A stretch of DNA of 64,000 nucleotides, taken from assembly GCA_032821775.1 (NCBI GenBank), contig JAVLRN010000003.1, positions 1,736,001 through 1,800,000 of the forward strand, in the 5' to 3' direction. This DNA comes from Sanguinoderma infundibulare. Its lineage: Eukaryota > Basidiomycota > Agaricomycetes > Polyporales > Polyporaceae. Made by a program: the position numbers and the translations under genes. Below are positions 5,201-34,400 of the stretch, one piece after another (position 1 is the first letter of the stretch; each line of letters starts with the position of its first letter). The notes under the pieces were generated by a model. It saw nothing but the letters and a program-made list of their open reading frames with translations, was not told the DNA's origin and made no database searches.

Positions 5201-6548
5201 CGGAAAGTTCAAATTCCGCGCCTGCCGCAATCCCGAAGAAAGGGACTCGTAGTGGGGAGGCCAATATCGTGCCCCCGATTAGCGTCCTCATCGTGGATGG
5301 TACAGTTTTACCTATCCCACGTCCTTGTCGGATTACCTCAAACCCTACTCCACAGATAACCCCATCAATCAAACGATATTGTCGACATTCATGAAGAAGA
5401 AAAAGATCAAGTACGATGTCGCGAAGAACGGCGAAGAAGCTGTTCAAAAGTGGAACTCGGGTGGATTCCATCTTATCTTGGTACGACTTCTTGTCTCGGA
5501 AGCGTCCATATTCTGACTTTGTGGTACAAGATGGACATACAGATGCCCGTCATGGACGGCATACAGGCGACCAAGGAGATCCGGAGATTGGAGAAATCGA
5601 ACGGTGTGGGAGGCTTCCCGTCCACCCCTCAGTCCGATGGTCAGCAGACACCTTCGGAAGCTTCCACGTCAGACTCTCGGTCCGCATCCACACCGTCGTA
5701 TCGTTCCTCGGTCATCATCGTCGCGCTCACGGCGTCGTCGTTGCAAAGCGATCGTGTTGCCGCGCTCGCAGCGGGCTGTAACGACTTCCTCACCAAACCG
5801 GTATCGCTTCATTGGCTGAACAACAAGATCATCGAGTGGGGTTCTATCAAGGCTCTACAAATGTGGGCTGACATCCGGCCTGAAGTCGTGCGGAGCATCA
5901 CAACAGGGCAGGTGGCCCAGGCTCGGGACGTGGCTAATAAGCTTCATGTTCCTGAAGGCCGGGCGACGCCAGTGGGGCCGCGGAGTCGGTCGTCGTCGAT
6001 GTCGCGAAAGCCCGTGTCTTTGGACGCCGCGAAGATCGCTGCTGCTACGCTTTCCAAGGCAGACAAAGCTCCGACGCTGTGTCAACCACCTGATGGGGTA
6101 CCACAGTCGTCATCGGAGTCGATTGTCAAGTCTGGCAAGAACGCTGATGTTGCTGGTGCGTTGACTGCGGAGTCCACTTCTGAAGGAGTTGTCTGAGCTT
6201 TGATTTGTCCACAGTTCCCATAGCCATCCGACGATGCGACACGATGCCGCAAGCGGCGCCGTCAGAACATGTGCAGAAGCCTAGTACGTTACTGTCTACT
6301 CATGGAGATGAGCTTGGCTAAAACCAGTTTCCACACGTCCAGCTCCACCCGAAGGCGCGCCGTCTTCGGCACCAGACCGTACTCTGTCCGCAGCGGCATG
6401 TGAAGGGCCTGCTGGGAACGCATCAGCTTCCCCAGCGGAAAAGAGTGCCGCTCCCGCGACGGTACCTGACGCTCAGCCTATTGAGAAAGACACTGTCGCG
6501 CCGCGGGACGACGCTAACGATGGACCTCTGCCTCCGGATCCGCAATGA
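2272..6548 (+). CDS. Ssk1-type response regulator (HOG pathway)
   Basis: Exons: 2272..3177, 3241..4735, 4784..5299, 5356..5480, 5531..6155, 6215..6283, 6328..6548; phases agree, giving 1318 residues. A C-terminal receiver domain starts near residue 965 with ISVLIVDDNP (acid pair), continues with the phospho-acceptor Asp in LILMDIQMPVMDG (about residue 1016), the LTA threonine and the FLTKP lysine (about 1106). A Ser/Thr-rich insert of about 40 residues sits between the third helix and the fourth strand of the receiver. The long N-terminus is disordered and Ser/Pro-rich. Ssk1/Mcs4 proteins receive phosphate from a histidine phosphotransfer protein and, when unphosphorylated, activate the MAPKKK of the HOG stress pathway in the cytoplasm. 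The start is the first ATG opening the coding-like sequence. The last two exons rest on a good gtgcgt donor and frame continuity; stopping at 6196 is the alternative. Confidence 0.87.
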
Positions 6549-12083: not shown

Positions 12084-15000
12084 TGTTTATTAGGGTCGCT
12101 GGTCGCCGCCGATCGGGGACGCGCTATGCTCGCGCCGCCGTCTGGGACATTTCATATATTCTCTTCACAGTTTCCCACTTCCCACTTGCTTCCCACCTCA
12201 ACGTCAACTTCACCCTCGTCATCGTCATCCCTATCACGTACTCATTTTCCACGCTCCATGCACAATATCCTCCCGCTCGCAAATCGTGTCTCTTTGTGTT
12301 TACGTGCTTCCACCATGCTTTGTTGTGTCTTTCTGATGTGCTGCGTATCGTCCTCTCCGTCTCATTCATGAATAGCTCTGTTCTCCCGTTACGATATTGC
12401 GTCCTTTCAATCTCCTTCATTGTAACACGTAGTTCCTTGTGCCGTAGTATATCTCGCACGGTTGTCAAATGAACGGAACGGTTGTCGGGGTTCTGTCAAA
12501 TGCTACGTGTTGTCAGCACCTGGTGTGGAAGATCGTCTGCTGTGGTAAGGAAGTTCTCGGTCTGGTATAGTAGGATTCGCACTGCGATCTTTTGTGGCGT
12601 ACTGAAGGTTCGTACACCGCGCGGTTGGTAGCACGCCTCTCCCTTCCCTTCGGAGACCCACTCGCGTCCTGGATGCCCTTGCGTTCCATGCATGGAATGC
12701 GAAGGCCGCAGATACACGCCGATACTAACGAGCCATCCTACCGGGCTATATCAGATCAATCTCCGCTCATTCAAAGTCAGCTCTCAACGCCCATACCGGT
12801 GGTGCCGATGAGGCTGACGATCAACCCCATGAAGCCCCACTGAATATTAATCGCTTAGACTGAGACTGGCGGCCGGGGAGCAGGGCACATGTGTACCGAT
12901 GGAAACTAGATAACACGTAAGACGTAACCGCCACTGCTCAGTCCGCCCGTGCCAAGCGAGCGACCGCCCCGAGGCCTCTGGCAGAGAGCTTGGGATTACG
13001 GTAGTCGGACGCACGCGCGCGGCTCTGAGTTTGCGGCCAGCCGGCGGGTGGTGCTCCACGCCGCGTGGGTTCCCCCTTGTCCGGGCCCTAGAACAAAGGG
13101 AGAAGGGGGCGTGCAGCGAGGTCTGAATGCGGCCGATCTCAGGCGGAGAAGGTGCGCGCGGACTGAACGGAACAGGCCTTGAGGCAGATCAGCCGCAGGG
13201 GGGGGAAGGCAGCGCGAGGCGCGAGGCTGCCACATTGGCCCGGCTAGGAGCTGGAATGCGCCAGGTGCCCTATCCGTGCGCCGTTTTCGCAGCTTCGCTG
13301 ACGGCCTGCGTGCGGCCGGCCGCCCCTGCAGGCGGGGCTAGAAGGTGCGGGGGTGCGGAGAGGACATCCAGAGGTGAGTTGTCTTTCGGCAAGGTTCACG
13401 AACCCCGATCCGTTTTTTTTTCAATTAGAGTCCGCCGCCCGAGGGTGGGCCGAACCCCGAATCCTTCGTGTTCTTTTGACCCTTGTCCTTTCCGTGGGCA
13501 CCACGTCCCGCCCGTCTGCGAAAGGACAGATTGCGCTGTCACATGGGAGCCCACCCGAAGGCGTCCCGCGATGGCTGGCGCAGGCAGTAAGAAGCCAGCC
13601 GTTGGATTCTGCGGCCAGTGTTCCGCATGAGCCCGTGTCTAGACCGCATGAACCGAAATGAAACCGTGGGCTTTCATTCCAAGCTGGACGTGTTGCGGCC
13701 AGGGGCCTGAGAACGGCTGGACGGTGTGGTGTGGAAATAAGAAGGTTTTAGCCTCGATCGGGTAGCTGTTCACATGTTGAGAGACCGACCCCGTCGTGCA
13801 CCCCGCCCTGCGTCCGGAGCTGACAATGACTCCAGCCTCCAGGCTCTGGCGAGAGGGCAGCGTGGGCACTTGTTTTTGCAAGTGGCTGGTCTTGAACGTT
13901 GAACGGCGCTCTAATGGCGGTTTCTAACGGGGTATTAGGCAAGCAGGAGGAGTTCTTCCCAGCATCCCTTCACGGATTGGCGCAGGGCGCCATTCAGTTG
14001 GACTCCCCGTTTGTCAAGCGCATATTGTCAGCGAGAATAGGCGACAATCAGCCCGCCCAGCCGCATGTCGCGGGATGCTGGGCAAAGGCCGTCGCCGGAC
14101 TGGTCGGCCGCTAAGTAGATACCGGTGAAGGTGTCTAAGAGTTGCACATTTTGGGGGTGGCCGTGACGGTCGCGGAAGAGGAATCTGTTCTGCATTAGAT
14201 GAGTGGTGCTTGGGTGGGGTTAGACGGGGCGCTACCCCAGCCGCCCCCCTCCGGAGCAGTGCCCGGTTCCGTCCCTGAAACGATTCGTTTGAGATGCCGC
14301 GGCCTATGTATGTTAAGGCAACGGACTGGGATCCGCGGGTCCGATGGCGGGATCGTCGCGCTGTTTTGCCCGACGCGAAAACATTGGGAGACCTAAATTA
14401 ATGTTAGCATGGTGTCAGCACGGTTTCGTTATATGCCCCGGCACTGCACGTTGACGTTGATCCTGGTTCCTCGGAGCTCTGTAGAACTCGACGTCCGAGC
14501 TCAAATCATGGAGTTCGCCGAGTAACAACTCGGGTTACGGGCAGAGTCACCACATTCCGACGGATCGAAATGCTTAATTTGTCGGGCTCGGAAAGCTGCA
14601 ATTTCCGGTTGCCAGGTTGCGGGGAGATCATACAGTTCAACAAAGACACTTCTGCAGGGCACTCAGTGACACTCACCGATTACAGAAAGACGCCAAACCG
14701 TCAGGGTAACTTCTGTCGGACTTTTGATGGAGTTCGCAGCGCCAGAGGATCCTAGTTGATCCCAGTCGTCGGAACTTTCGTGAAGGAGGCCAGCGAGCCG
14801 CTTGGGGTCCTGGTTACGAGCACGGCGCTGATATCCACATAGTCCAGCGAACCGCCCGCTGACGCCGCGGCAACAAGATTTACATCCAGAAGACGTTTCT
14901 GTTCACATTTACCGGGCATGTGGGAGGCGCCTCGGACTCAGAGGAGCGGCGGATGCCTACGGTTGAATGGCAGCAATGTTTCCCAGTATGTCTCTGCCCG

Positions 15001-15284
15001 GTCTTCCGGGCCTGGCCATGTGATTGCCGCTAAGCTCAAATAATCGGGGGCACATAACCATCCGATCGTGGCTGATCAAGTTCACAACCAAACGGCGACG
15101 GGTACGTGCTTGAGGAGCGCGGCGTTTACGAAAGTTGACAGGTGAATCTGGGAGACAGAATCACCTGTTTGGAGCTTTCTATACGCGTCTAGATGCAAGT
15201 GATATTGCTGGATCAATTTACTACGGAAGTTCTTTGAGTTCAAGATATATCTGTAAATGGCACAACTCGCCCTTCACAAGCTTC
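12084..15284. other. Gene-poor 3.2 kb stretch
   Basis: It starts with a pyrimidine-rich 3' UTR of the JmjC gene (to about 12480). From there to the end of the ATPase copy A only short, low-complexity frames occur (longest 13127-13630), with no domain and no coherent exon chain. A T9 run is at 13411-13419. No terminal repeats, transposase or reverse transcriptase motifs were seen. It may be decayed element sequence, but nothing proves it. Confidence 0.45.
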
Positions 15285-17296
15285 TTACACGACCATTCTG
15301 GATGCACCGCCGTCAAGCGTTACGCGCCGCCTAGTCCGAGCAAGCAGATACCGCCGCCCGAAGGGTTGCAACCCGATCGCACTGCTGCTTGAAGGCTTGA
15401 GCGATGTCGGGAACACCCCCAGGCCGGAGGGCGCGAGGACGACAGCTTCTCCGGTCTATTGTGCCTTTGTAAACATGCGCCATAACATGGCAACTTCCCA
15501 TAGATGACTAACCTTCAACTTGACGACGTGATCGAATGCGCCATCGTCAGAGAAGTCCGCCGAGACGTGCTTGACTATTGCCTCCCACCATGACGGCGAC
15601 GAGAAGCGATGCAGAATCGCGATACTGCATAGGTCGATCAACACGGGCGGGAGAGCAGTTGGTTCTGGTGTCGCCAAAGCGGTCCTCGTTAAATTGCGCA
15701 CTCCGTCTGAACGTTTGTAAGGATCAAACCTTGGGTGCTAATAATAACTCTCATGGCAAGGTGTCGTTGTTGCCGTGTCAGCGATGTCAAAGCCTTCGTA
15801 AGTCCTGTGGTCCCCCTGTTGAACGACAGGTACTGCAGCAAATTCGTAAATATGCAGCATAGATAGAGGATCTGCTAACCTGCCTTGTGGGCCTCGTCAA
15901 CAACAAGGACTTTCCCGGTATCAACGTCGGCTCGCACAAAAAGGCGGGTGGCGATCTCGAACAAGGCACATGCCATGGCGGGATCGATAAACGGGTCGGA
16001 CAGGTCGATGACGGTGAGCTGCCCAGCAGTGAACCGAGTCTTGACCTTGTCGACTGATGTGTTGACATATGCCTTGAGAAGCACCAGGCGCTGGTCAAGA
16101 GCTGCGGTTTGCACGGGATTCATGTCCTTCTTTGCTCTCTCGATCTCCTTGAGGAAGCGAGCATACGTGAACTGCTCCCCCAACTCCCGCAAGATCGACT
16201 TCATTCAGCTACGTGAGTATTGCATTCATCGACCAATGAGATGATATCAGTTCGACTTACCAGTACCCGATGCATGTACAGCGGCGCAGAGTCGGACGTG
16301 CCCACAGCCATCATGGTTAAGATGGCCTCTGCGTCGAGTTCGCTTTCGCAGAACTGGAGGGATTTTACCGTGACCTTGTCGCCCAACACCAAGTAAACTC
16401 GGCGCATGGTTGCAAGAGAGGACCGGGAGACATATACTTTGACCTTTGGGGGGCGCACGCCCACTACGTCGCTGCATCCGATGAACGCAGCTTCACAGGG
16501 AAGCGAGCTGGAACCACCCTCCCCGAAGTGGAGGACGAGACCGCTGAGGGTCTTGTGCGAGACGCCAATAGCGTCGCAGCCCGAAAGCAACATGTTCTCC
16601 AGTAGAACGGAGACTGTATGCGACTTCCCCGACCCTTGTACCCCACAAACGATGGCCGAGAACGGCGCGTTCTATGGATACGATATAATTACTTAGAGAT
16701 GCAAGCTCGAAGTGATAGAGACTTCGTACTTACGGTGTTGACGTAAAGACGGGGATCAGACGGTGCGTAGCTGCAACCCTTCTCGCTGCATATGTCTCAG
16801 TAGGGCCATCGAAACACAAAGAGGTATCGAGCACTCACCGGATTGCGGTAACACTTCCGAGCACTCCGTACTGGGATCGCTTTTGCGCCAACCCAGCTGC
16901 TTCGTACGCTGCCAGAGTCAAGAGGGGCGCCGTCACGAGCTCGTGCTCATCCGCTGCATCGTCTAATGTAGTATCGAGGTTCAGCAGGCGCATCTCCTGG
17001 ATGCGAGCATTGAATGAAACGTCTAGCACCATCTATACTCATCGAAACTCACCTCGCAACCGACGGGGGACTGTTAACATTTATCAGCCTCCTGCATGCG
17101 GACGGCCGGCGCAAGTATTATGCCCATACGACGTACCGTAACGCAAGTAGATGCGGTCCCTGGTGAGCTGCACGTGCGCACGCAGTCTTCGCTCGACTAG
17201 TGTGCAATTGTGAGCGGACAAGCTGGAGATATTATAGCTAAGTGATCGTACCTGGGATGAGTCGACGGGCGACGGGGGCTGCGATTCGATGTTCAT
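15285..17296 (-). CDS. HerA/FtsK-like P-loop ATPase, copy A
   Basis: Exons (read from the right): 17296..17137, 17022..16839, 16785..16734, 16671..16261, 16198..15884, 15832..15730, 15664..15513, 15455..15285; 515 residues. Walker A is GVQGSGKS (142-149). Walker B is KVLVVDEAHK (D370, E371), preceded by GQLTVIDLSDPF. The motif ISTQEP (STQ at 406-408) follows a helix with Gln/Arg (SLTRQQRH), and the C-terminus has TGEAVVLAPSG. That order (Walker A, IDLSD, DEAH, STQ, GEAV) matches HerA/VirD4-class hexameric DNA-translocating ATPases; the similarity is my reading of motifs, not a search. No NurA-like nuclease is nearby. Intron 15883..15833 uses a GC donor (AAG|GCAGGT). The first exon is less certain: the 114-nt intron 17136..17023 was preferred over an extra 18-nt exon. 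Function unknown. Confidence 0.72.
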
Positions 17297-17992
17297 TGAG
17301 GATAAATGACTTAAACTGAAGAAAGAAGGGCTTGAAATGGGATGGAGAAACCTGGAGCTATAGGGGGTGCTGTAGGACGGACGAGACGAAGGAATGAATT
17401 TATACCCTGAGCGATCCCTCCCGCTCCAGCTCACATCGTGCTGCGGCAGTAGTGGCGAGCGCCGCATGGCTGCTGCATCGACTACATGCGCAACGCGGAT
17501 CCCTGCGCATAGCAGCACAGAACCAAAATCAGGCGAACGCAAAATGGCAGCCGATTAAACATCACTCGCCGAACTTCTACATCCTTCGACTGGTGAGTTG
17601 ATTTCCCCATTACCATTGAGCCCTTCGACCTTGCTGTGTCCTACAGTGCGTTGAACCGAAGTACCTAAGAATGCTTGGTCAAAAAGGGCGTGGCGTCACG
17701 TCTGGTACCGTTGCCGCAGCAACTACCGCGATGGATCCACATCGGTTAGGAACAGCAACGCAAGAAAGATCTTTGCAACATACCAAAGCACCGCCGATGC
17801 AGCACAAACTGCGGGGGATATGCCCCGGATACACCAGTGTTAAAGGATCTGTGACCGCAGTGCCCATACCAGTGAATACAACCGAGTGTGCCATCATAGA
17901 AGAAACAGGCCACCAATTAACGTAGCAATACGATATACGCATGAAAAAACAGAATCCAGCTAGTAGTCCATTGTCCGTGATAGAATAACGAT
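17297..17992. other. Spacer between the tandem ATPase genes
   Basis: About 0.7 kb between the start of copy A and the stop of copy B. It should hold the copy A promoter and the copy B 3' UTR. No coding sequence was recognised; open frames here lack domains. Confidence 0.55.
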
Positions 17993-19916
17993 CTAGGCCT
18001 TCAGGGCCATGATGGATGCTCCGCCATCGACAGTAATGCGCTGTCTCGTCTTGATGAGCAAGTACCGCTGCCCAAAATGGGCGACCTGGACTTTCCGGTG
18101 CACGACGGCGCCCGACGCGGTCTTCCTTGTGATGGCGAAGAGCCCGAGGCCGCTTGGGCACAAAACGAGTGCTTGACCGGCCTGCCCAAGTGACATGTGG
18201 TCAACATACGTAAGTTGAAGGAAAACGTCGTAAATATACAGTCACCTTCAGCCTGACGACGCGTTCGAACCCCTCGGCGGCGGAGACATCGGCACATACC
18301 CGCTTTGCGACCGCTTCCCACCATGCAGGTGACGAGAAACGGTGGAAGATGGCGATGCTGACCAAGTCGATGAGCACCGGCGGAACAGCGGTTGGCTCTG
18401 AGGCATGTGCGAATGTTAGTGGAGGGACGCGGCACGGAAGAATTGAAAGACCACCTTGCGTACTGATGACGACGCGCATGGCCAAGTGGCGTTGCTGGCG
18501 AATGAGCGACGTCAGAGCCTTGGTAAGACCAAAATGGCCGCGATTTGCCGACAGGTACTGCGACAGGATGAGTTGTGCACGATCTAAGAACGGCATGAAC
18601 ATACATACCTTATGAGCCTCGTCGACAACCAGCACCTTCCCTGTGTCAAGATCCGAACGAACGAAGAGACGAGTTACGATTTCGAACAGAGAACACGCGC
18701 TGGTGGGGTCGATGAAAGGGTCGGACAGATCGACAATGGTCAACTCTCCGCCCTCGAATAGCGACTTCTTGCGATCCTTCTCTGGAAGAACAAAGGAATG
18801 CAGCAGAGCAAGCCTTTGATTCAACATTGCATTCTGGGCTGGGTTCATGTCCTTTTTGGCTTTTGTCACCTCAGCCAAGAACCGTTCGTAGGTGAAACCT
18901 TCCCCAAGATCGCGGAGTATGGACTGCAGATCACATTAGCACAAGCCTTTGATTCGTCACTAGCGACATACCAGGATCGAGTGCATATATAAGGGCGCGG
19001 TTTCAAGTGAGCCCATTGCCATCATGGACAAGATAGCCTGCGCATCCAACTCCGCCTCTGGGAAGTGCAAGGGACTGACCTCCACACCCTCAAGTGGAGC
19101 ATATACGTTCCTCATGGTAGAAAGAGAAGAACTGGAGACATAGACATGAACGCGGGGGGGATCTAAACCCTCTCCCTTGGGACAGCCGACCCAAGCCGCT
19201 TCGCATGGCTGCGCGCCTTGGCCGCCTTCGCTGAAATGCAGTACAAGCCCTGTAAGCGCTTTCTTACAGGAACCGATTCTAGGGCAGCCTTCGTAAAGCA
19301 TATTTTCCAGCATAATGGAGACCGTGTGCGACTTTCCAGATCCCTGGACGCCGCATACCAAAGCGGAGAACGGGGCATTCTACCGAACGAAACGGTTAAA
19401 TGACTGCATTCTCTGACATTCCGAACGCACCGTGTTAACGTATAAGCGTGGTTCTTGAGGCTTCTGCGAACCCGACGGATGGCTACGGTGGTCTCTCGTT
19501 CATGAACGGAACAAGGAATGGCATTACGCTGAACTCACTGAATAGACAAGATGCGGCCTAAAACCCCGTACTGGCTACACTCGCTCGGAATATCGCATTG
19601 GAGAAACGCCTCTCTCGTGAACAGCGGGGCAGTCTTGACTTCATGGTCCTCTACAATCTCGTCGAAGGTGAGGTCATCGGACAACAGGGTCAATTCCTAA
19701 TAAGACATCAATCCATCATGCTCGCGTCGACGAGTGAAGCTGCCTACTCGCGTCTACTGCGTTGTCCTCATCCTGAACCCTTTGTCAGAAGCAACAAGAT
19801 CACAAGTACAACCCACTCACCAGTTCAGCGACCCTCGACATTTTACGTGTCATGCTTCGCGTCTGACTGGCAGGTGGTTGCACGGAAGTAGACCTCTTCG
19901 ATGTCTTCTCCTTCAT
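17993..19916 (-). CDS. HerA/FtsK-like P-loop ATPase, copy B
   Basis: Exons (read from the right): 19916..19821, 19696..19539, 19482..19431, 19379..18972, 18923..18609, 18557..18455, 18397..18246, 18181..17993; 490 residues. Walker A GVQGSGKS is at 112-119, Walker B DEAHK at 339-343, STQ at 375-377, and the C-terminus AGQALVLCPSG parallels copy A. Five internal exons are the same length as in copy A (52, 315, 103 and 152 nt exactly; 408 against 411), so the pair is a tandem duplication with conserved intron positions. The N-terminus differs: copy B lacks the ERRLRAHVQLTRDR segment of copy A, and its first intron (124 nt) is a weaker call. The start codon lies 272 bp from the divergent RRP8 gene. 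Both nucleotide-binding motifs are intact, suggesting an active enzyme of unknown role. Confidence 0.72.
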
Positions 19917-20071
19917 TGATGCAGTCCGATCAAGCGCGAAGTGCTAAGAAGAGCGCGACAGTTATTGCGCAATTGTGGTGTGTGATCAGGTTGAACTCAG
20001 GATGGTAGCTGTCTGTGGAGAGAGACACGTCGAGTGGGCGCTTACGACCTCGTCGCACTGGATGGCGTTCA

Positions 20072-20079
20072 TCACGTGA
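20072..20079. promoter_or_regulatory. TCACGTGA palindrome in divergent promoter
   Basis: An 8-bp perfect palindrome containing a CACGTG E-box, in the 272-bp interval between ATPase copy B (minus) and RRP8 (plus), about 110 bp before the RRP8 ATG. CACGTG is bound by basic helix-loop-helix factors of the Cbf1 type in fungi. Binding here is inferred. Confidence 0.4.
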
Positions 20080-20188
20080 CCCTGATTGGAATCTTTCACT
20101 GTGACCAAGTTTGAAGTCCCCAACTCTCCGAAGTGCCGTTTCGGCTTCTCGTTTCCTTCCTCTTCCAATCCGCTCTGTCTCCACTATA

Positions 20189-21729
20189 ATGTCGCTCTTC
20201 GAGGTGCCTGGATGGAGTGTACCGTCTGCACCAGTGCCCCAAGGAAACAAGAAGCGCAAACGACCAACGGCGAAGGACTCCGTCGATGTCGACGAGGCGG
20301 AAAGAATGCACTCTGCGCAGAAGAACATAGAGACGTTGATGAAGAGTCTCGGTGCGGGTATGGACGCGTTGGACGGTGAGGACGCAGGCCCACCTTTCAA
20401 GAGGAAACGGGACGGGAAGGAGAAGAAAGGGAAGGATGTCGAGCGAGGCCAGGGACAAAAGGAGACAAGGGGCCGAAAGACGGGACGAAGGGAAAAGGCG
20501 GAAACGGTACAGCGAGACGACAGGAAGGAGCAGAAGAAACGCAAAACGGGCGACGCCGCGACTCCAGCAGACAGGCAGGAAGACAAGTCGGGTCCCTCCT
20601 TGGCGAAGAGCAAAAAGAAGAAGCAAAAGCAGCAACGCGCGCAGTCCGCAGATGGTCACTCAGATGCGCACTCTGTTCACCATGATGCCTCAACTTCACC
20701 TGTCGTGAACGAGAGCATATCTCATATCTCGTCCGACCAAGGGGCCAAGGGCAAACGCAGACACGGTCATGACGGCCTGACGGCCCTCCAGGCCAAGATG
20801 AAGGGCAGTTTAGATGGAGCTCGTTTCAGGTACGTCTTCTTCACGACGGCGTCGTTTGAAGTTCTGGAATGTAACGATGCACGTGTAGGTGGATCAACGA
20901 GATGCTTTACAAGTCCGATAGTAGCAAAGCACGCGAGGTCATGAGCCAGGATCCCGCCGTCTTCGCAGACGTAAGTTCGTCGTGGTTGGTCTAATTTATT
21001 CTTAATCCATATTGCTTCCCACAGTACCATACTGGATTTCGGCATCAGGTCGAATCCTGGCCCACAAATCCCGTATCACACTATACATCTGTGCTGTCTT
21101 CTTACCCAGCGAAGACCACCATCGCAGACCTGGGCTGCGGCGATGCTGCTCTCGCTCGCGCGCTCACTCCCAAGAGAATGTCTGTTCTTTCCTTTGACCT
21201 AGTTTCCGACGGCGCATATGTCATCGAAGCGGACATTTGTTCGCGTGTGCCTCTGCCGGGATCCGAGCCTCTCTTAAGCGGGTCTGGCGGCGAAGAGGAG
21301 GGCGAGGGCCAGGTGGTTGATGTAGTCGTTTGCGCGCTCAGCCTTATGGGCACAAACTGGCCAGGCTGCATCCGCGAAGCATGGCGGATCTTGAGACCTG
21401 GGTACGTGAATTGTTTCCGTTGCTGCCTGCTTTGTTCTCACTTAGTCCTACAGGGGAGAGTTGAAGATCGCGGAAGTGACCAGCCGGTTGACAAGCGTGG
21501 ACGAGTTCACATCCCTAGTCTCGTTATTTGGTTTCAAACTGAAGTCCAAGGTACGCTCACAATCCCACGGGCACGGATCCATGCTAAGCGAGTTCAGGAC
21601 GAGCGGAATTCGCACTTTGCCCTATTCGAATTCAAGAAGATACCGCGGAAGCCGAAGTCCGAAAAGGACTGGGAGAGGCTCTTGTCGCGGGGAAGCATGC
21701 TCAAGCCTTGCGAATATAAGCGACGGTGA
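20189..21729 (+). CDS. RRP8: rRNA methyltransferase RRP8
   Basis: Exons: 20189..20829, 20889..20970, 21025..21401, 21454..21550, 21598..21729; 442 residues, phases consistent. The first half is lysine/arginine-rich and disordered, as usual for nucleolar RRP8. The catalytic half begins ARFRWINEMLY and contains the SAM-binding motif TTIADLGCGDAALA (about residues 276-289), VVVCALSLMGTNW and IREAWRILRPGGELKIAEV, all hallmark RRP8 sequences. The enzyme makes the m1A mark of 25S rRNA (helix 25.1 in yeast) in the nucleolus. The ATG chosen begins MSLFEVPGW, typical of fungal RRP8; upstream in-frame codons are not AUG. The 3' exon ends EYKRR. Confidence 0.93.
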
Positions 21730-21974
21730 CAAATGTTGCTAGCCTCTCCAGACGTGCTGCAGAGGGTCTAGTTTGTTCGCCCTCTGCGTCCATTTTAGTG
21801 CTGTACCTACTGATGATCAACGCGATCCGCGAGCACGCTGAAACCTCCACCGAGAAACGTTCAGTGTGACGTCCTTATTCGTCAACTGGCACACGCCCCC
21901 CGAACCTATCATTTACGTATTTACTTTTATCCTCATCCCGACAGCTGCCCTTCCTCTCTCCACTGCAACCTCCC

Positions 21975-23849
21975 ATGGCTGAACGCAATCTGTTACGGTA
22001 TCCGCCTGACCTCACTAAGTAAGTTCCCGAGGTCGGTATTGGATAGTCTTACATCTGATCAAACGCCTTTAGGGAGCTGCAAGCTCTAAAAGATCAGCTT
22101 TCTGAGTACAATGCGGCAGCACTCGAACTTAGCTATCGAATCAACGCGCTCTCCCTCCCCCCCAAACTTCCCGCGGAGATCCTTTCAAGAGTTTTCCTCA
22201 CAGCCGCCGCCCTCGTCCACAAGAACGATATCTCCTTGATGCTCGATCCGTCTATTGATCATAGGTCCGGCTCTTACTACAAGTGGGTCCGCATCGCGCA
22301 CGTTTGTCGGTACTGGCGCAAGGTCGCGTTGGGATGCAGTGCGTTATGGGCATTTCTCGCCTTTGAAACGGTCCACATATCCTATGATGCGCATACAAGG
22401 TGTCTCGAACGCGCAGGGGACTGTCCTTTGACCGTCATCTACCACCAGAACCACGGAAATGCCTGCGACCGATGCACCACGGGTTACATGGACGAATTTG
22501 GGCTCGAGCACATTCGAAAACTCTTGCCTCGCATTCGAGACCTCGTCGTCATCGTCGAGACGGACACGGCCACCGGGGCCCTCTGGGAGACCTTAGAGAA
22601 TCCCGCCCCGAGTTTGGAACGCTTCCAAGTGGCGCTCCGGGGATATGCTTTCTTGGAGTACACCGGAGGCGAGAACCACTTCACATTCGACGTGCCTAAC
22701 AAACTCTTCGCTTCGACGACGCCACGGTTGCAATCCCTCGAACTTGCGAGCGTCTTTTTCCTGTGGTCGAACTCCATCTTCGCCTCTTCCCTGCGCCACC
22801 TTGAAATCCAGGATCACATAGGCCAGAAGATGGGCACGGATATGGGCGGGTTCCTCTCGACGCTGCGAACGCTTCCCCACCTCGAGACGCTCATCACGGA
22901 TTCTCTTCCCAGCGTCACTCCGTTTCTGACTCTCACCGTGACCTCGCTCCCTTCCCTTCGCTACCTTCACGTTACGTCGTCAATTGCCCAGGCCGTCTTT
23001 GTCTTATCACACCTCCTTGTCCCCCGGCACGCAACCATATCCCTCAGGCTCGCCGGCGGTGATTCGCAAGAAACCCCGTCCCTCAGCCAAGCTCTTGCCG
23101 AGCTTGTCAAAGCGACCGCTATCCACACGGGTTCTTATACTTCCGCTTCGGGAGGTCTCTCGTTGGGTGAAGACCAAGCGTCCTTTCGCGGTTGGGCGGG
23201 GTTAATCACGGACGTCTTGCGCCTGTGGGATCCCAGGTCCGACATCCCACCGCGCCTAGTCCTCGCTATGGACAGCAATGCGGAACCGGACCAACTGCCC
23301 AACATCATCCGAAACCTATCTTTTCCACACCTCCGCGCATTGTATGTCTCTGGTCCGACCCCGTCCAACAAGCCGTGGAGCGAGATGTTCTCGGAAGCGC
23401 CGAACGTCTCCCTCCTGCGGGTCAGTGGGTGCGCTGGGTTCCTCCTTGGGACATGTCTTGCACGGCCTGTCGCTCGCCGCGTCGGCGAGTATAGAGACGG
23501 TAGCGGAGATCCCGGAGTGGAAGAGGCGGGAGTCGTGTTGCCTCGTTTGCAGGTGCTGCAACTGGCCAAAGTCCGCTTTCCTCCCCCTCGTGAGCGGGAT
23601 TACTTCAAGTATCTCGACGACTGCTGCTGCGACTCGTGCAAATACGGCGACGGGCGGGGGAGGAAGCGAGGAATCGACGTGCAGGACTTGGTCATGGGTC
23701 TGCGAAAGCGCCGGCAATTGGGCGCCATGGAGATCGGTGTCGTCGAATTCGCAAATTGTGAGTACATGAAGATCACGCACATGCGTCCCCTGTTGCGGAC
23801 CGCACCTGTGGTTCTCTTCGATGGCCTTCTGCTGCCGTCGAATCTATAG
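21975..23849 (+). CDS. F-box/LRR-like protein 1
   Basis: Exons: 21975..22018 and 22073..23849 (intron 54 nt); 606 residues. A short coiled-coil-like start (KELQALKDQLSEYNAAALELSYRI) leads into an F-box: LPPKLPAEILSRVF (about residues 43-56) and WVRIAHVCRYWRKVALG. The remainder looks like degenerate leucine-rich repeats (SLRHLEIQ, LPSLRYLHV, PRLQVLQLAKV), ending with a Cys-rich patch DDCCCDSCKYGDG near residue 535. This architecture is greatly expanded in Agaricomycetes; F-box proteins tie substrates to Skp1-Cullin1 ubiquitin ligases. Substrate unknown. A paralogue in the same orientation follows 458 bp downstream, indicating tandem duplication. Confidence 0.85.
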
Positions 23850-24307: not shown

Positions 24308-26119
24308 ATGTCCGCAACGCAAGTGAGCGTTATGAGACGCTACGCGGTTCCTTCCAAGTGAGCATCGCTCTGCAATGTGTCCCGTGCCTACCGCTCACTT
24401 TGTTCAATCTTCATCCATTGTGCTATGTCTTGCGATAGTGGTGGCCTCATGCTCGCTGCGCACAGCGCCCCGCTTGTCGGATTGTCACAGCCCGCGTGTA
24501 TGAAGATGCCACCGGAAATCCTTTCCAAGATATTCCTCCTCCACATGTTGCACCTCCGGGAAGAACACCTACAGATCCTCTTGGATCCATGGCGGGATGG
24601 CCCCACTCCGCGATACTACAAGTGGATCCTCGTAACGCACGTGTGCAGGTATTGGCGCGACGTAGCTCACCACTATGCCAAGCTGTGGACCTTCGTTGCC
24701 CTCCAACCTCGTACCGTCCCAGGAGTTCTACACCCTGACGTCATGCAGCGCGCAGGCACTCTTCCTCTCTCTATCGCCTATCACCAAACCCGAAGCCGCA
24801 CCCCCGAAGGCAAGGCATGGCGGACGCCTGCCGTCGCCCATATCGGTCATCTGTTGCCCAGGATGCAGAATCTCTATCTCGTCCTGGACGACACCGATTG
24901 CACTGCGGGCGAGTTATGCGGCGCCCTGCGTCGGCCGGCCAAACGCCTCGAGTCTCTCCATATCGCCTTTGGCTCGGAACGGCCCTGCCAGTTCGTCGCC
25001 CAAAACCGGGAGATCCCGCCATTGCTTTTCGAGTCCACGTTGCCCATGCTACACACCCTCACGATCTCCAACGGCAACTTCGCCTGGAACAACTCCCTCT
25101 TCCGTCCCTCTCTTCGGCACCTCGAGATCATTCACCGCAAGCGTCTCGAGCCCGGCGTGGATGGTATGCGCATGTTCATCGACATGCTGGCCACCCTACC
25201 CCTTCTCGAAACCTTCATCATCGACTCCGTTCCCGAGTGCAGCGCCGTCGAACAGGTTGTGACCCTGTCGAATCTGCGTTTACTCGAGGTTCGAGGGACC
25301 GTTAGGAAGACGGCGCTCTTGCTCTCCCACTTGCGCTTCCCGACGTCGGCGACGATCTCGATCGGCATACCCTGCGATGGCATCGGCGCCGTCAACGCCC
25401 GAGAGCTTCAGTCGCTCATCCAGGCGCTCCTCCCCATTTTGCAGGAAGAGCCCCTTCAGACGATCAGCTACGCAGTCGCTTCCTCCGGCGCGAACACGCC
25501 GGACGCTTTCCGCGCATGGGCCGGGGACTCAGCGGACGGAGATCACCCATCGCCGGAAGTGGGACCACGCCTTATCCTGACCGGAGACGGTTCTCGTGCT
25601 TTGGACCCCGTTCTACGCGGCCTCGATCTATCGCACGTCAGGAGCGTTCACATTTCGGGGTTGGCATCGTCTACTCCCAGGCCGAGCTGGCTAGAGGGAG
25701 TGCCTGACGTTGCGCTTTTGCATCTGGAGGAGGACGATTCGTCAGCTGTGGACGCCACTGAGGAAGCCCAGGCAATCACTGAGCATCCACAACGTCCAGC
25801 CAGCTACTCCCCCGCTCCAAGCCATGCACTTCACTACCACGCAGCGCAAACGACGGCATGGTCTGGGGGGCTACTGGAACCGCAGGAAGGGCTGTACATG
25901 GGGCCGAAGTTGTCTTTGCCGCCGTTGGGAGAAGTACTGGAGTATCCAGGTGGGGTTTCTGGACCGTGGGTATCGGGAGCGGCGCAGACGAAGGACAGCG
26001 GACATCAGGCGTATCGTCTTGGGGGAGTTCACTCATGTGTCGCATGCGCGGGCCCTGCTGAGCAGTTTAAGCACCGGCTTCCCTCTCTGCTAGGTTGGTG
26101 GGGTGGTGACGATTGTTGA
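24308..26119 (+). CDS. F-box/LRR-like protein 2 (3' end uncertain)
   Basis: Exons: 24308..24357 and 24439..26119; 576 residues as read. The F-box region MKMPPEILSKIFLLHMLHL and YYKWILVTHVCRYWRDVAHHYAKLW aligns with the neighbour upstream (KWVRIAHVCRYWRKVALG), and LRR-like segments follow (SLRHLEIIHRKRL, LPLLETFIIDSVPE). The two genes share exon-1 phase and overall length, so they are tandem paralogues. After about 25740 the frame used becomes Pro/Gly-rich and unlike the paralogue, whereas the frame one base over reads PPLQAMHF, which resembles the paralogue's PRLQVLQL. Either a 31-nt intron (25741..25771) leads into that frame, ending at 26093, or a frameshift has altered the tail. Confidence 0.75.
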
Positions 26120-29007: not shown

Positions 29008-31206
29008 ATGCGGTTCGCGTCCGTGCTCCCGCTGGCCCTTCTCGTCCTGCGCCCCGTTCTCGCACAGGTCCCACTTCCTAACCCACCATGGCTACCTCCC
29101 GACGCCTCTACCGGCACCCAGTCTACGAATGGCACATCACCTAACTCACAATGGTCAACTATGCTCGGAAACTTGCTCTATTTCTACGATGTACAGCGAA
29201 GTGGCAGGCTGCCTTCGAGTAATCGTGTCCCTTGGCGTAATGACAGTGCCCTCGACGATGGCCGAGACGTCGGTCTTGACCTCACCGGTGGCTTTTACGA
29301 TGCTGGAGGTACGTCCCTCTTCCCGTTCAGTGTCCATCCGTCCATTCCTCACCCTTTCCCTTCTAGATTATGTCAAGTTCACGTTTCCCATGGTATGCTC
29401 TTACTCTACTCGCCCGAGCCCGGTCGACGCTCAGTCCCTTTTGATAAGTCATTCTCTATCATGTCAATTTGCATGGGTGCACTCGCCACCGGAAGAGGTA
29501 TGTAATCCTGAACAGCACTACTTATCGTCCATGTATACCAACATGTCATCCGACAGGTTACGACCTTGCCAACCAAGCTCCCTATCTAGACGACACCCTC
29601 CGCTGGGGACTCGACTGGCTCATCAAGGTAATCTTTGCCACAGTCGCGGGGTGCCCGAGCAACATAACAGTTCACTTACCTTGATCTTCACAGGCCCATC
29701 CCTCACCCAACACATTCTATGTTGAAGTCGGCGAAGCTGACATAGACAACAACAACTGGGGAGGTGACCGATACATAGCCAATCCCCGCCTTTCGTACCA
29801 GATCAACAACACCAGGTCCGTTTCACGCCCCATTTCCTCCCTCCCAATATCTCATGAATTTTGTACGACATAGCCCCGGCACAGACGCTGCAGCTCAAGG
29901 CGCCGCTGCCTTCGCCGCATGTTCAGCCCTGTACAACAACCGCACCCTTTCCCCCTCTTCCACCTCCTCGCTCCAGAACGCGTCTTATGCTGCTTTGCTT
30001 CAAGCACATGCTCGCGACCTCTACACGTTTGCTACCACCGCAAATCAGCAGGTCTACCAACAAGCCGTTCCCGTCGCCGGAGAGGGTTATCCGTCTTCAG
30101 GCTTTATGGACGAACTTGCCATTGCTGCCTTGTTCCTCGCCCTGTCCGAGACGAGCTCAAACGCCACCAATTACTACGCTGACGCCGTAAAGTGGTATTC
30201 CTCCGGAGGCCTTGGCTCCGGTCTAGTCCCGGGCCAGGAGGCCGTCTTCAACTGGGACTCCAAGACGCCTGCCGTTCCCCTCCTCGGTGCCGCACTCGCT
30301 AACGCATATCCGAACGTGGTTTCTGGGAGCAACATGACGCTCCAGGTGTGGCAGAGTACTCTGGAAAACTACTTCAACATCTTCATCAACAGGAGTGGGC
30401 GAACGCATCTCACCAAAGGTCAGCCCAGCAGTAATTGCCCGTCCAACACCCTTTAATCTCGAGCTAGGTGGCCTGCTGTACTTCCCCGGAGACTCTGACG
30501 AAGCATCTCTGAATCCCGCGCTCAACACGGCCATGCTCATGATGATCTACGCGGCGACAGGCATTCAGAGCAGTCAAATGGACAAGTACCGCGCGTTTGC
30601 CCAAGGCCAGCTGGACTACGTCATGGGCAAGAACCCGATGAACGGTGCGTGATATCCTCATGCGTTTGTTCGAGCGTATCTAAGGCGACCCCAGTTCCCT
30701 ACGTCGTCGGCACGCACCCCAACTCGCCCGTCAACCCGCACTCCGCGATTTCCACCGGCTGGGTCCCTCCCAACCCCTCCGTACAGGCTCCTGTCAACTT
30801 CGACACCGACCCGCCTCAGGAGGCGTACGTCCTATACGGCGGTGTCGTCGGCGGCCCGAGCGATCAGGACCTCTTCTTTGACCTTCGCCGCGACTGGGTC
30901 CAGAACGAAGTCGCGCTCGACTACAACGCCCCTCTCGTCACGCTCGCCGCCAACGCCCTCACCATCGGGTCCGGCGACCCGTACTACACGCAGGTCAAGG
31001 CCGGGTCCTATGCCGCCGTCAAGCCGAGCGGGTACCCGTGCGATGCCGCCGTCAGCACAGGCTGCACAACGGCCCAGCCAGGCAACCTCAGCACGGGGGC
31101 CAAGGTCGCCATCGGCACCGTCGTTGGTCTGGTGGGTCTCATGCTAATTGCGCTCGCGGCTTACTGGTGGTGGACCGCCAAGCAGAGGCGCAAGAGTCGG
31201 TACTGA
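29008..31206 (+). CDS. GH9 endoglucanase with C-terminal membrane anchor
   Basis: Exons: 29008..29308, 29367..29392, 29449..29497, 29557..29627, 29694..29815, 29874..30418, 30468..30644, 30695..31206; 600 residues. A signal peptide covers residues 1-19 (ending VLAQ). GH9 hallmarks: [15 protein letters not shown] with the Asp pair D98/D101, [29 protein letters not shown], then [10 protein letters not shown] and the C-terminal acid Glu 502 in [12 protein letters not shown] Ser/Thr/Gly linker with [10 protein letters not shown] leads to a single transmembrane helix (about residues 567-590) and a basic tail KQRRKSRY. Family enzymes hydrolyse beta-1,4-glucans by inversion. Membrane-anchored GH9 enzymes occur in basidiomycetes and may act on the fungus's own wall or on plant cellulose; which one is not decided by sequence. 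Exons of 26 and 49 nt are well supported by motifs. Confidence 0.92.
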
Positions 31207-31454: not shown

Positions 31455-34400
31455 TTAGTACACCTCAAGCACATAACGTTCCTCCTCCTTCAGACCCTCC
31501 AAGAACGTGCCCGCCCTCTCGCGATCCAGCCCGGCAGATGTGCCCAGGGCGTCGACAAGCGCCTCATACACGTCTGGCACGGGCCACGTTGGGCCGCACA
31601 GGTAGAACACGCCCTGCTCGGCCCAGAGCATGCGCGCGAGGTCCTCGCCGTCCTCGCGCATCTTGTGCTGTATGTAGACCTTGCGGGGCGTGTCGCGCGA
31701 GAAGGCGAGGCCGGCGCGGGTGATGATGCCGTTGAGGATGAACGCCTCGATCTCCTCGCCGTACAGGTACTCCTGCGACTGGTGGCGCGAGCCAAAGTAG
31801 TAGTACGTTGGCCCGACGGGGATGCCTTGCGAGGCGAGGTGGGCGCGGTACTGGAGGAAGGCGCGGAAGGGGGCAGCGCCGGTTCCGAGGCCGGCCATGA
31901 TGAGGGGCTGCATGTTGTCCGGCGGGAGCTGTGTGCCAAACGTGTGGATGAGAATCTGCCGGGGGAGTGGAAAGAGTGAAAAAGACGGACCTTCATGACG
32001 CTGGGCTTGATGGAGACGGTGACCTTTTGGCCGACCTTGAGACCGGCGAGGTATCGCGTGCATTGGCCGTAGCGAGGGGAGCCTGAAAGCAAAGCATCGT
32101 CAGCATAAAGACGCGTACGCGGGGGGGGGGGGAGGAGAAAGGACACTACGCACCACTCGGCGTCACCCACTCGACGCTGACGACGAGCAAGTCGACGCGG
32201 TCGCCGACGACGGCCTGCGCGCTCGCGATGCTGTAGTGCCTTGGCTTGATGTCCCCGACGAGCTCGCACAGCACCTCGATCCCCGGCCGTGCGCTCCGGT
32301 ATCTCCGCAGCACGTCCGCGAACGTCACCGTGTCCTTCTCGCCCAGCTTCTTGAACGTCGACGCGCCCTCGGGGCTCCCGACGAACCGCAGCGCGTACCG
32401 ATCGGCGACGTCGGTCGCGTGCTCCGCGAGGTCCGTGTAGAACGCCTTCGTCGGCCGCCCGAACAGGTCGACCTGCTGCTGCAGCGCCTGGAAGACCGTG
32501 CGGGTGTGCACCCGCGCGCCGTCGGCGCCGGGCACGGGGAGCGTGACGAGCTTGGCGGGGTCGACGCGGTACCACGCGCAGAAGTCGAGCACCTCCTCGG
32601 CGTCGTTCCAGCCGTGCACGCCGAGCGCCTCGCCGATCTCGTACGCGAGCCCGGTCCCGCGCGTGTCGAACTCGAGGTGGAACACGTTCCGGTCGTACTC
32701 GAGCGGCGTCAGCCGGCGGTTCACCGCGCACGTCACGAGGAACGTGCGCTCGGGGAGCTCGGGGCGCAGGGCTGGGTTTTGGTCGTACGACGAGGCGGCG
32801 AGCGCGTCGGGCGGGGTGAACGCGGAGGGGAAGAGGATGTGTTTCGCGGCGTCGTGCCAGGAGCCCAGACGGGCGCCATTGACGACGGTGTCGCCCTCGG
32901 CGGTCTCGACTGCGATCGCGTTGAACTCAAAGTGCTTGAGCGGGGTCGACTCGGGCTGCTCGGCCTCAGAGTCGGCGGGGAGCTCCACCTCTACGAGGCC
33001 GATCCACGCTCGATGGACGACCTTCGCGAGCTCGACACCCTGGACGACGTCGCCGAGGTCCGCAGCAGCGACCTTGCGTACAAGATCCTCTGTTGCGGCG
33101 GCGCCGAGATACAGGCGGAGGAAAGCCAGGAGGACGATGACGTTCTCGAGGACCTTTTGGACGTGTTTGCTGCCCGCGGCGAGCTCAGCAGCGAGCTTCT
33201 TCGCGTCGAGCGTGCAAAGGCGGAGGCTGCGCGCCTGGATGAGGGTGATCGCTTCCTTTTGCAGCGCCGCTGCCAACTCCGCTGCGGTCCAATCGGTCAC
33301 GACAAGCACTGGGGAGCCCGGGGCAGCATGGGTGAGGACGTCGTGAGATTTGAGGAGGGACTGATCGAGGATCGCGACAAAGTTGGCCACTCCAGCGCTC
33401 TGGGAGGATATCGGCAGGATGGTCGATAGGGGGACGTAAGGCGCTGTGTCGCCCTTGGGCGAGAGCACGATCCTGTCAGCTGTCACACCTCCTGGCTTGG
33501 AGAAGACGTCGTGGTCGGTCAAGAGGCGTGAAGTGAGTGATTTATGGGCCAGAAAAGTGGTCTCGACCATGCGAGGGAGTGAGGACAGGGACGAGTCCGG
33601 AGTGGTGAAGAACAGCAGCTTCTTAAGATTGGGAGCATCTAGGGATGTGACGGCAGGGAGGATCTCCGCAATGAAGCTGGTAAACGTCGCAGGCTCCGTG
33701 ATGAACTCCTGAGTGCGTGCGGGGACAACACGGTGTGACTTGACGATGGGACCCGGCTGCGAGGGATCGAGGAGGGTGGAGAAGACGTCGAGGTATAGCG
33801 CACCCTGGGTGCTCGCGGTCGGGACCTCGTCAACGACATGCACACGCTTGACGGCACTAGGCAAGACGCTGCGAAGGGCGTCCTCGTTCCATGGGCGGGG
33901 GGCACGGACGACGACGACGCCCAAGCTCGAGACACGGCTTGCAATGGCCTTGGCTGTGAGCGCGAGAGGGCCGTTGAGCAGAACGACCACGGTCTCCGCG
34001 TCTTGACTGCCTGCGTAGTCGAAGACGCTGTAACCAGCGGCCTTGAGACCATCCTCGACGGTAAGCCCGGGTTCCGGTGCGACGATGGAAGGGCTGGTGA
34101 CATGACCGGTCTCACGAGCGGCGCCATGGTGGTCGAAGAGGTGGATGACATGTGTCCCCGTCAGCTTATATGCGAGTGCGGCGAGGTCAACCGTCTCTTG
34201 GGGAGTCGCGGATGCAAGCACGGTGAAACCCTCAGGGAGGATGGCCAACGCGGGTGTGAACGGCGCGAGAGTGGGCGACAGAGCGAAATGCTCTCCGACA
34301 GGTGTGACGGTCGGCACCTGGATAACCAGCCGGCTCGTCGGGCTCGCGGGGGGTAGGAAAGACAGCGACTGGACCATTGCGGCAAGTCCAGAGGGGGTAG

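What the first reader, a model, noticed from the sequence alone, without database searches (positions are those of the whole stretch)
15285..19916. Two tandem HerA/FtsK-like ATPases in a fungal nuclear genome
Seen: both proteins carry Walker A GVQGSGKS, a strand ending VIDLSD about 40 residues before Walker B (VLVVDEAHK), a following R/Q-rich helix (SLTRQQRH), an STQEP motif, and TGEAVVLAPSG/AGQALVLCPSG near the C-terminus. Known: HerA, VirD4 and FtsK translocases have that motif order, with STQ-like sensor before the last helix and GEA at the end; in bacteria and archaea they pump DNA, HerA with NurA nuclease in end resection. Inference: a eukaryotic branch of HerA-like ATPases retained with intact nucleotide-binding sites. 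No nuclease partner is adjacent, so its partner and job would be new.
Basis: partly seen in the sequence, partly recalled or inferred. Interest (0 to 1): 0.8.

Follow-up and report, generated by a model that had tools for sequence, protein, structure and literature searches.

The report
Tandem fungal HerA-like DNA-motor genes
Two neighbouring genes in a bracket-fungus-type genome encode ring-motor-type ATPases of the HerA/FtsK kind, found in many mushroom-forming fungi and closest among the bacteria searched to the motor domain of an anti-phage defence system; the family is already in print, but its job is unknown.

Summary

New here: no third copy found in the genome; one duplication at the base of a Trametes/Ganoderma/Lentinus clade, then mainly vertical descent, which argues against the suggested mobility for this branch; and an FHA-domain fusion in eight Rhizoctonia/Ceratobasidium proteins. 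Most likely a host-domesticated ring translocase. Hexamer, DNA substrate, partner and role are untested.

The parts
15285..17296 (-). Gene A: HerA/FtsK-superfamily ATPase, 494 aa, 10 exons (17296-17252, 17196-17137, 17070-17053, 16996-16839, 16785-16734, 16671-16261, 16198-15884, 15832-15730, 15664-15513, 15455-15285)
   Evidence: Spliced model; groups with Ganoderma and Dichomitus orthologues
17993..19916 (-). Gene B: tandem paralogue, 490 aa, 8 exons (19916-19821, 19696-19539, 19482-19431, 19379-18972, 18923-18609, 18557-18455, 18397-18246, 18181-17993)
   Evidence: Spliced model; groups with Ganoderma and Dichomitus orthologues
16621..16644 (-). A: Walker A GVQGSGKS (aa 121-128; K127)
   Evidence: this Lys in 179 of 186 sequences
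19329..19352 (-). B: Walker A GVQGSGKS (aa 112-119; K118)
15887..15910 (-). A: Walker B VLVVDEAH (catalytic E350)
   Evidence: Glu in 183 of 186; aligns with HerA E356
18612..18635 (-). B: Walker B VLVVDEAH (catalytic E340)
15761..15775 (-). A: RQQRH; R376 aligns with the trans arginine finger R381 of Sulfolobus HerA
   Evidence: Arg in 184 of 186
18486..18500 (-). B: RQQRH; R366 is the putative trans arginine finger
15660..15739 (-). A: STQEP sensor motif (Q387), split by intron 15729-15665
   Evidence: Gln in 185 of 186
18393..18464 (-). B: STQEP sensor motif (Q377), split by intron 18454-18398
15300..15344 (-). A: C-terminal signature LARTRRRVTLDGGAS
   Evidence: with the preceding L it fits hxhxxRxRhsxDsGx[ST] of PMC10853773
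18014..18058 (-). B: C-terminal signature LIKTRQRITVDGGAS
   Evidence: with the preceding L it fits hxhxxRxRhsxDsGx[ST] of PMC10853773

Best explanation
Genes A and B encode stand-alone HerA/FtsK-superfamily ATPases of the eukaryotic clade whose nearest bacterial relatives found here are the C-terminal motor domain (Mad8) of large subunits in MADS anti-phage operons. Shown: intact genes, motif set, HerA-type fold with a four-helix insert and without a HAS barrel (model of an orthologue), purifying selection, two tandem copies with no third found, mainly vertical descent in the tree. Inferred: the protein forms a hexameric ring, hydrolyses ATP at subunit interfaces (Walker A Lys, Walker B Glu, arginine finger supplied in trans) and threads DNA, most likely double-stranded, through the pore. 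The conserved C-terminal RxR..[DH].G tail docks a partner that was not recognised next door. In this fungal branch it is a domesticated host gene with a housekeeping role in nuclear DNA, such as genome surveillance or repair, and not a mobile element.
Against: No DNA-binding, oligomer or expression data. The model is of an orthologue, monomer only. DNA as substrate is carried over from the superfamily, which also holds Zot and secretion ATPases. The two window proteins score under every Pfam cut-off. By sequence the solved DndH-C domain 7es4 is only a 0.11 hit to the mixed fungal/bacterial profile, while HerA chains reach 4e-10, so the DndH link rests on fold, on the published clade and on an SspH profile hit in one of two Mad8 proteins scanned (L014 yes, 1e-8; L016 none at 1e-5). 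A fourth HerA residue needed for normal ATPase activity, D176, was not mapped. The FHA in the Ceratobasidiaceae fusions resembles SLMAP and Vps64, which as I recall are not DNA-repair proteins. Synteny in other fungi was checked only by equal contig lengths. PMC10853773 reads the fungal class as 'genomic elements' with possible mobility. The tree has 33 open forks of 99.
Confidence: 0.7

Rival explanations
1. Mobile-element gene: the tandem is (part of) a selfish 'genomic element' of the kind proposed for the fungal clade-6 ATPases, and the ATPase serves its own mobility.
For: PMC10853773 section 22 uses the term and suggests mobility; the divergent long members (31-46% identity) include several copies per species, for example in Mycena albidolilacea, two Phanerochaete species, Punctularia and one Auriculariales strain.
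Against: Two copies only, no divergent relative found in the genome; mainly vertical tree; 9 and 7 introns with 7 shared; the longest inverted arms that flank the pair are 24 nt at 79%, not tested against shuffles but unremarkable; no transposase or integrase among the eight other ORFs of the window scanned.
Confidence: 0.1
2. Genuine HerA orthologue working with a diverged NurA-type nuclease in DNA end resection.
For: Best Foldseek and VIA rows are archaeal HerA; Lys, Glu and Arg of the active site align with those of HerA; the mixed profile finds HerA chains at up to 4e-10.
Against: No HAS barrel: none of the 50 VIA rows starts before model residue 32, and in 4d2i the match starts at residue 111; the HAS domain is where DUF4297 docks in a bacterial HerA complex (PMC11291478 passages). 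No NurA hit in the genome, while the control search rings in 7 of 14 genomes (an exon-by-exon search that could miss a diverged nuclease). Mad8 is a better profile hit than any HerA model in all five proteins tested.
Confidence: 0.08
3. Defence function kept: the fungal motor still takes part in an antiviral or anti-transposon surveillance system in the nucleus.
For: The closest bacterial relatives found sit in MADS operons; an FHA phosphopeptide-binding fusion could parallel the kinase and phosphatase genes that accompany Mad8 (55 and 54 of 57 loci).
Against: No kinase or nuclease recognised among the eight other ORFs scanned; the adjacent methyltransferase is Rrp8-like (PF05148), not of the Mad2 DNA-methylase type. 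Conserved evolution of A and B is unlike an arms-race effector. The FHA resembles SLMAP and Vps64.
Confidence: 0.25
4. Non-DNA cargo motor, for example a protein-translocating or secretion-type ATPase.
Against: The nearest bacterial relatives sit in a DNA-modification system; other profile hits are DNA motors (CedD up to 3e-8, HerA, a phage terminase family). Membrane segments were not tested.
Confidence: 0.1

Closest known systems
Eukaryotic 'clade-6' HerA/FtsK ATPases (PMC10853773, Nucleic Acids Res. 2024, gkad1213)
   Same: Fungal; four-helix insert; C-terminal signature hxhxxRxRhsxDsGx[ST] (A and B fit every position); no nuclease linkage seen.
   Different: Most members are said to carry an N-terminal wHTH-derived extension and 1-2 C-terminal wHTH. 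A and B end within a few residues of the signature, so they have no C-terminal wHTH; their N-terminal part is unresolved. The published reading is of 'genomic elements' with possible mobility; this branch looks fixed and vertical.
Mad8 motor domain of MADS anti-phage systems (DndH/SspH-like large subunit)
   Same: Best PADLOC hit; shared QYG..G, GVQGxGKS, DLxD, DEAHKY, RxxRH, QxP, HxFxSPxW, G[EQ]A and RxR.T..GG in all 7 aligned sequences.
   Different: In bacteria fused behind more than 1000 residues in 75 of 83 loci, beside kinase, Mad7 and phosphatase genes, and the signature has H in 83 of 83 where the eukaryote-side sequences have D in 178 of 179. A and B are free-standing.
Archaeal/bacterial HerA (4d2i and others)
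   Same: Fold and motif order; Walker A Lys, Walker B Glu and trans Arg equivalents.
   Different: No HAS barrel in the model; no NurA hit in the genome; 15% identity to 4d2i over the structural alignment.
Zot (PF05707), source of the automatic database name
   Same: Superfamily-level similarity over the Walker B to Gln-sensor region.
   Different: Scores under Pfam's cut-off for A and B; the automatic name 'Zona occludens toxin N-terminal domain' gives no reason to think these are toxins.

Membership tests
HerA/FtsK superfamily | Walker A Lys/Ser, Walker B Asp-Glu, Gln sensor in that order | tested here: met
   K 179, S 181, D 184, E 183, Q 185 of 186; present in A and B
HerA/FtsK superfamily | Trans-acting arginine after Walker B | tested here: met
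   Profile alignment to 4d2i puts HerA R381 on the second R of RQQR; Arg in 184 of 186. That it acts in trans is inferred from HerA (PMC4351679 passages)
HerA/FtsK superfamily | HerA-type RecA-like core fold | tested here: met
HerA/FtsK superfamily | Hexameric ring that moves DNA | not testable with these tools
   Monomer prediction only
HerA (proper) | N-terminal HAS barrel | tested here: not met
   No VIA row starts before model residue 32 (starts 32-86); in 4d2i the match starts at residue 111; that the barrel lies before this is recalled. The first ~30 residues of the model are of low confidence. Tested on orthologue P0001, not on A or B themselves
HerA (proper) | NurA partner in the genome | tested here: not met
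   0 hits at E <= 0.001 in the window's genome, six frames, exon by exon; control rings in 7 of 14 genomes
Eukaryotic clade-6 HerA/FtsK (PMC10853773) | Four-helix insert in the P-loop domain | tested here: met
   Helices 200-206, 218-232, 235-246, 251-265 between strands 186-190 and 283-288 of the P0001 model
Eukaryotic clade-6 HerA/FtsK (PMC10853773) | C-terminal hxhxxRxRhsxDsGx[ST] | tested here: met
   A and B; a relaxed form found in 179 of 186, with D in 178 of these
Eukaryotic clade-6 HerA/FtsK (PMC10853773) | N- and C-terminal wHTH ('most' members) | tested here: inconclusive
   No room C-terminal of the signature; no Pfam HTH family among the hits listed; N-terminal helices of the model are of low confidence
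Mad8 (MADS) | Profile match | tested here: met
   PDLC04140 7.2e-19 (P0001) and 5.7e-21 (P0018), best hit in all five relatives tested; A and B themselves were not run against PADLOC
Mad8 (MADS) | C-terminal domain of a large subunit in a mad operon | tested here: not met
   A and B are free-standing; no Mad-type partner among the eight other ORFs scanned
FtsK proper | FtsK/SpoIIIE family score over the curated cut-off | tested here: not met
   11.4 and 13.2 bits against a cut-off of 24

The most novel reading that the evidence does not exclude
A motor related to the translocase domain of bacterial MADS/DndFGH-type antiviral systems was fixed early in fungal chromosomes as a free-standing nuclear DNA pump. 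It now patrols the fungal genome (transposons, viral DNA, damaged ends), recruits its effector through the conserved RxR..DxG tail, and in some lineages is aimed by phospho-signals through a fused FHA domain. That would be a eukaryotic continuation of a prokaryotic DNA-surveillance motor.
Probability: 0.2. Interest if true: 0.85.

Novelty: new member of a known kind. Interest (0 to 1): 0.5.

Why it matters
HerA/FtsK pumps are generally thought of as prokaryotic and viral (my recollection). A conserved, intact, apparently host-fixed version in many mushroom-forming fungi, with the catalytic residues kept and no known function, is a directly testable gap in eukaryotic DNA biology. The link to Mad8 gives a concrete bacterial comparison, and the FHA fusion gives a handle on regulation. 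It also shows that the automatic database label 'zona occludens toxin' on these proteins is misleading.

Tried and rejected
Searches that gave nothing: fungal-only alignment A1 in genome contigs (0 of 42 pattern stretches) and viral contigs (0 of 26); the mixed alignment A2, whose first row is bacterial, then gave 306 of 501 in genome contigs (80 kept) and 4 of 45 in viral contigs. tblastn of one exon piece against phages: nothing at E <= 0.01. Rfam over 13000-23000: nothing.

Literature: HerA+FtsK+eukaryot+superfamily, 82 papers, 25 listed; HerA+fungi+ATPase+DUF87, 0; zona occludens toxin+Basidiomycot, 1, unrelated by title; hexameric HerA+NurA+arginine finger+Sulfolobus, 2; HerA/fungal/FtsK/basidiomycet, 3 of 4 terms, 344 papers, 15 listed, none relevant by title; HerA-FtsK+eukaryot since 2023, only PMC10853773; HerA-like+fungi, 5, of which PMC10853773; FtsK+Agaricomycet, 0. 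Read: PMC10853773 section 22 whole and passages; passages only of PMC12839542 (27, not used), PMC4351679, PMC11291478, PMC12926258 (62, no useful hit) and PMC12904381. The MADS primary paper (Maestri et al. 2024) was seen only as a reference in PMC12904381; 'mad8' occurs in none of the rows listed. The 2004 FtsK-HerA survey and the 2014 HerA structure paper (both recalled) are not held.

Set aside by judgement: fusions to VPS33 (P0127, P0128), to tetrahydrofolate synthase (P0137) and to a protein with PF12152/PF02854 domains (P0139), as probable merged gene models. Fold search against viral models gave a phage HerA-like protein first (2.4e-12) and many packaging ATPases; this is superfamily level and was not followed.

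Limits of counts: one search lists 120 of 552 hits; A1 used 73 of these 120; the tree used 100 of 184 relatives plus A and B, chosen by hand for spread; the tree used 24 of 184 relatives, A, B and 17 bacterial rows, and warned of long branches meeting. In one search, 7 of 186 sequences lack the signature match (P0118, P0093, P0123, P0125, P0141, P0180, P0184). P0184, an unnamed metagenome protein, groups next to the bacteria; its domain of life is unknown. In one search no methylase or S-subunit gene was counted in the 57 long loci, because the 10-kb flanks end near the kinase gene; they are annotated in L014 and L016, and L015 has a methylase. The large protein of L015 and all of L017 were not run against PADLOC. 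Order-level names of fungi are from my own knowledge of species names.

Mended after the filing check: the VIA start range (32-86, not 32-57), the neighbour of B is a methyltransferase (Rrp8-like), the weak 7es4 sequence hit is now told, FHA count worded by how the proteins were found.
Full report
What is there. The window lies in a 48.9-Mb, 87-contig genome. Two genes on the minus strand fill 19916-15285. Gene B (19916-17993) has 8 exons and 490 codons; gene A (17296-15285) has 10 exons and 494 codons. The two proteins are 59.1% identical over 484 aligned residues. Each of the seven introns of B has a counterpart in A at the same aligned place and phase, including the phase-1 intron that splits STQ|EP. 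Third codon positions differ far more (0.663) than first and second (0.353, 0.250). This is an old tandem duplication of a gene under purifying selection. No other copy was found in the same genome, whether searched with B or with a divergent long relative; both searches score only the best candidates, so a very divergent copy could be missed.

Catalytic residues. In Sulfolobus HerA, K154 (Walker A), E356 (Walker B) and R381 (trans arginine finger) matter for ATPase activity (PMC4351679, passages). Their fungal equivalents are kept in 179, 183 and 184 of 186 sequences, gaps counted as losses; the sensor Gln in 185; a Trp in the HRFSSPxW motif in 186 of 186. A fourth HerA residue, D176, was not mapped. 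So the motor should be active. That it forms a ring and moves DNA is inferred from the superfamily, not shown.

Already in print. PMC10853773 (Nucleic Acids Res. 2024; section 22 read in full; [quoted passage not shown] it suggests an unknown partner and perhaps mobility. A (LARTRRRVTLDGGAS, preceded by L) and B (LIKTRQRITVDGGAS, preceded by L) fit the signature at every position. The finding is therefore a member of a described class, not a new class.

Nearest bacterial relatives found. Among PADLOC models, mad8 is the best hit for all five relatives tested, including an ascomycete (P0149) and an unnamed EukProt protein (P0183) (6e-21 to 1e-10), ahead of HerA models. tblastn against plasmids with P0018 matches 95 records at E <= 10; four cover the core at 1e-30 to 2e-22, the rest are partial and weak. 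With P0183, the same four records match at 6e-36 to 5e-32, two more weakly. In the three annotated records of the four, the hit is the C-terminal ~400 residues of a ~1850-residue protein, next to an N6-methylase, an S subunit (two of three records), a large Ser/Thr kinase and a Mad7 protein; the fourth has an 1815-codon frame there. PADLOC finds mad2, mad5, mad6, mad7 and mad8 among six proteins scanned from L016, mad2, mad6, mad7 and mad8 among four from L014, and mad3, mad6 and mad7 in three from L015; some of these proteins score higher with generic methylase, specificity or kinase (PglW) models. The 'DndH-like' label for the large subunit rests on an SspH profile hit in L014 (1e-8; none at 1e-5 in L016) and on the published clade; by sequence the solved DndH-C 7es4 is only a 0.11 hit to the mixed profile, HerA chains up to 4e-10. 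The mixed alignment of 7 shares QYG..G, GVQGxGKS, DLxD, DEAHKY, RxxRH, QxP, HxFxSPxW, G[EQ]A and RxR.T..GG. A genome scan with it returned 306 relatives (best 80 kept, nearly all Bacteroidota by their titles because the lead query is from there). Over these 80 plus three viral-collection loci, the domain is fused behind more than 1000 residues in 75 of 83, five are shorter, three run off the contig; the C-terminal signature is present in 83 of 83, always with H where the eukaryote-side sequences have D; kinase and Mad7 genes lie nearby in 55 of 57 long loci, a PP2C gene in 54. An unrooted tree separates the 17 bacterial rows from the 26 others by one branch (SH-aLRT 90), with one unnamed metagenome row, P0184, next to the bacteria; the program warned of long branches meeting. 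Which side is ancestral cannot be said here.

Descent in fungi. The database search found 552 homologues, 120 listed; every listed row that bears a species name is a mushroom-forming fungus by my reading. In a 102-row tree, A groups with Ganoderma P0022 and Dichomitus P0017, B with Ganoderma P0005 and Dichomitus P0009; the A-type (11 rows) and B-type (13 rows) clades are each at 99 and are sisters. Judged by equal contig lengths, several species have both types on one contig (Ganoderma leucocontextum, Trametes punicea, T. cingulata, Daedaleopsis nitida, Pilatotrama, Lentinus tigrinus). Other clades follow recognised orders (Boletales, Agaricales, Gloeophyllales; names recalled), though 33 of 99 forks are open. 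That is the pattern of a host gene with lineage-specific duplications, not of a mobile element. A search made to see longer relatives (64 hits) shows a second, divergent class (31-46% identity) in Phanerochaete, Punctularia, Mycena, Auriculariales, Ascomycota and others, some with several copies; the published 'elements' may refer mainly to those (my inference).

FHA fusion. Eight Rhizoctonia/Ceratobasidium proteins share the FHA-linker region, and all eight also carry the motor core; the two further hits of that search (Bacidia, Xylaria) do not. PF00498 is precomputed for seven of the eight (P0188 starts inside the domain) and significant in the four scanned (3e-10 to 6e-11). The FHA resembles SLMAP and Vps64. 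The FHA-linker region is 71-92% identical at 95-100% coverage in six of the other seven (92% at 71% coverage in P0188), which speaks for a real fusion, but no transcript was seen. It is not mentioned in the parts of PMC10853773 that I read.

How it probably works. A hexameric ring hydrolyses ATP at subunit interfaces and pulls DNA through its pore; the conserved tail docks a partner. The bacterial counterpart sits beside a methylase and a kinase in a non-self DNA defence system; a fungal role in nuclear DNA surveillance or repair is the natural guess, but nothing here tests it. Confidence: superfamily about 0.97; clade-6/Mad8-like about 0.95; DNA translocase about 0.7; host-domesticated about 0.85; defence-like role about 0.25.

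Noticed in passing
window 20995-21729 (+), with an upstream exon in the open frame 20105-20944 (+): Gene head-to-head with B: Rrp8-like methyltransferase (PF05148, 2e-33; the Rrp8 name is recalled). Whether the arrangement is conserved in other fungi could not be checked.
   Followed up: partly
window 22059-23849 and 24362-26119 (+): Two large ORFs; the first has a sub-threshold F-box-like hit, the second looks similar by eye but has no Pfam hit.
   Followed up: partly
window 29779-30456 (+): Glycosyl hydrolase family 9 exon (6e-23).
   Followed up: no
window 32146-34848 (-): 900-aa open frame with an FAD_binding_1 domain (1e-46); sulfite-reductase-like by eye.
   Followed up: no
window 5360-6196 (+): Response-regulator receiver domain (4e-10), SSK1-like by eye.
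   Followed up: no
P0131 (Punctularia), residues about 610-800: C-terminal repeats of this long fungal member look like winged-helix/LOTUS-type units by eye; not tested.
   Followed up: no
P0121 (Psilocybe cf. subviscida), residues 38-487 and 522-962: One predicted protein holds two motor cores; probably a tandem pair merged by gene prediction, or a true double motor.
   Followed up: no
L098-L100 (IMG/VR contigs): Mad8 genes with kinase and Mad7 genes on contigs binned as viral: defence islands on mobile DNA or mis-binned host DNA.
   Followed up: no
L014 and L016 (NZ_CP110138.1, NZ_OY725936.1): In two of the plasmid records Fic-family and HipA-type genes lie near the MADS operon.
   Followed up: no
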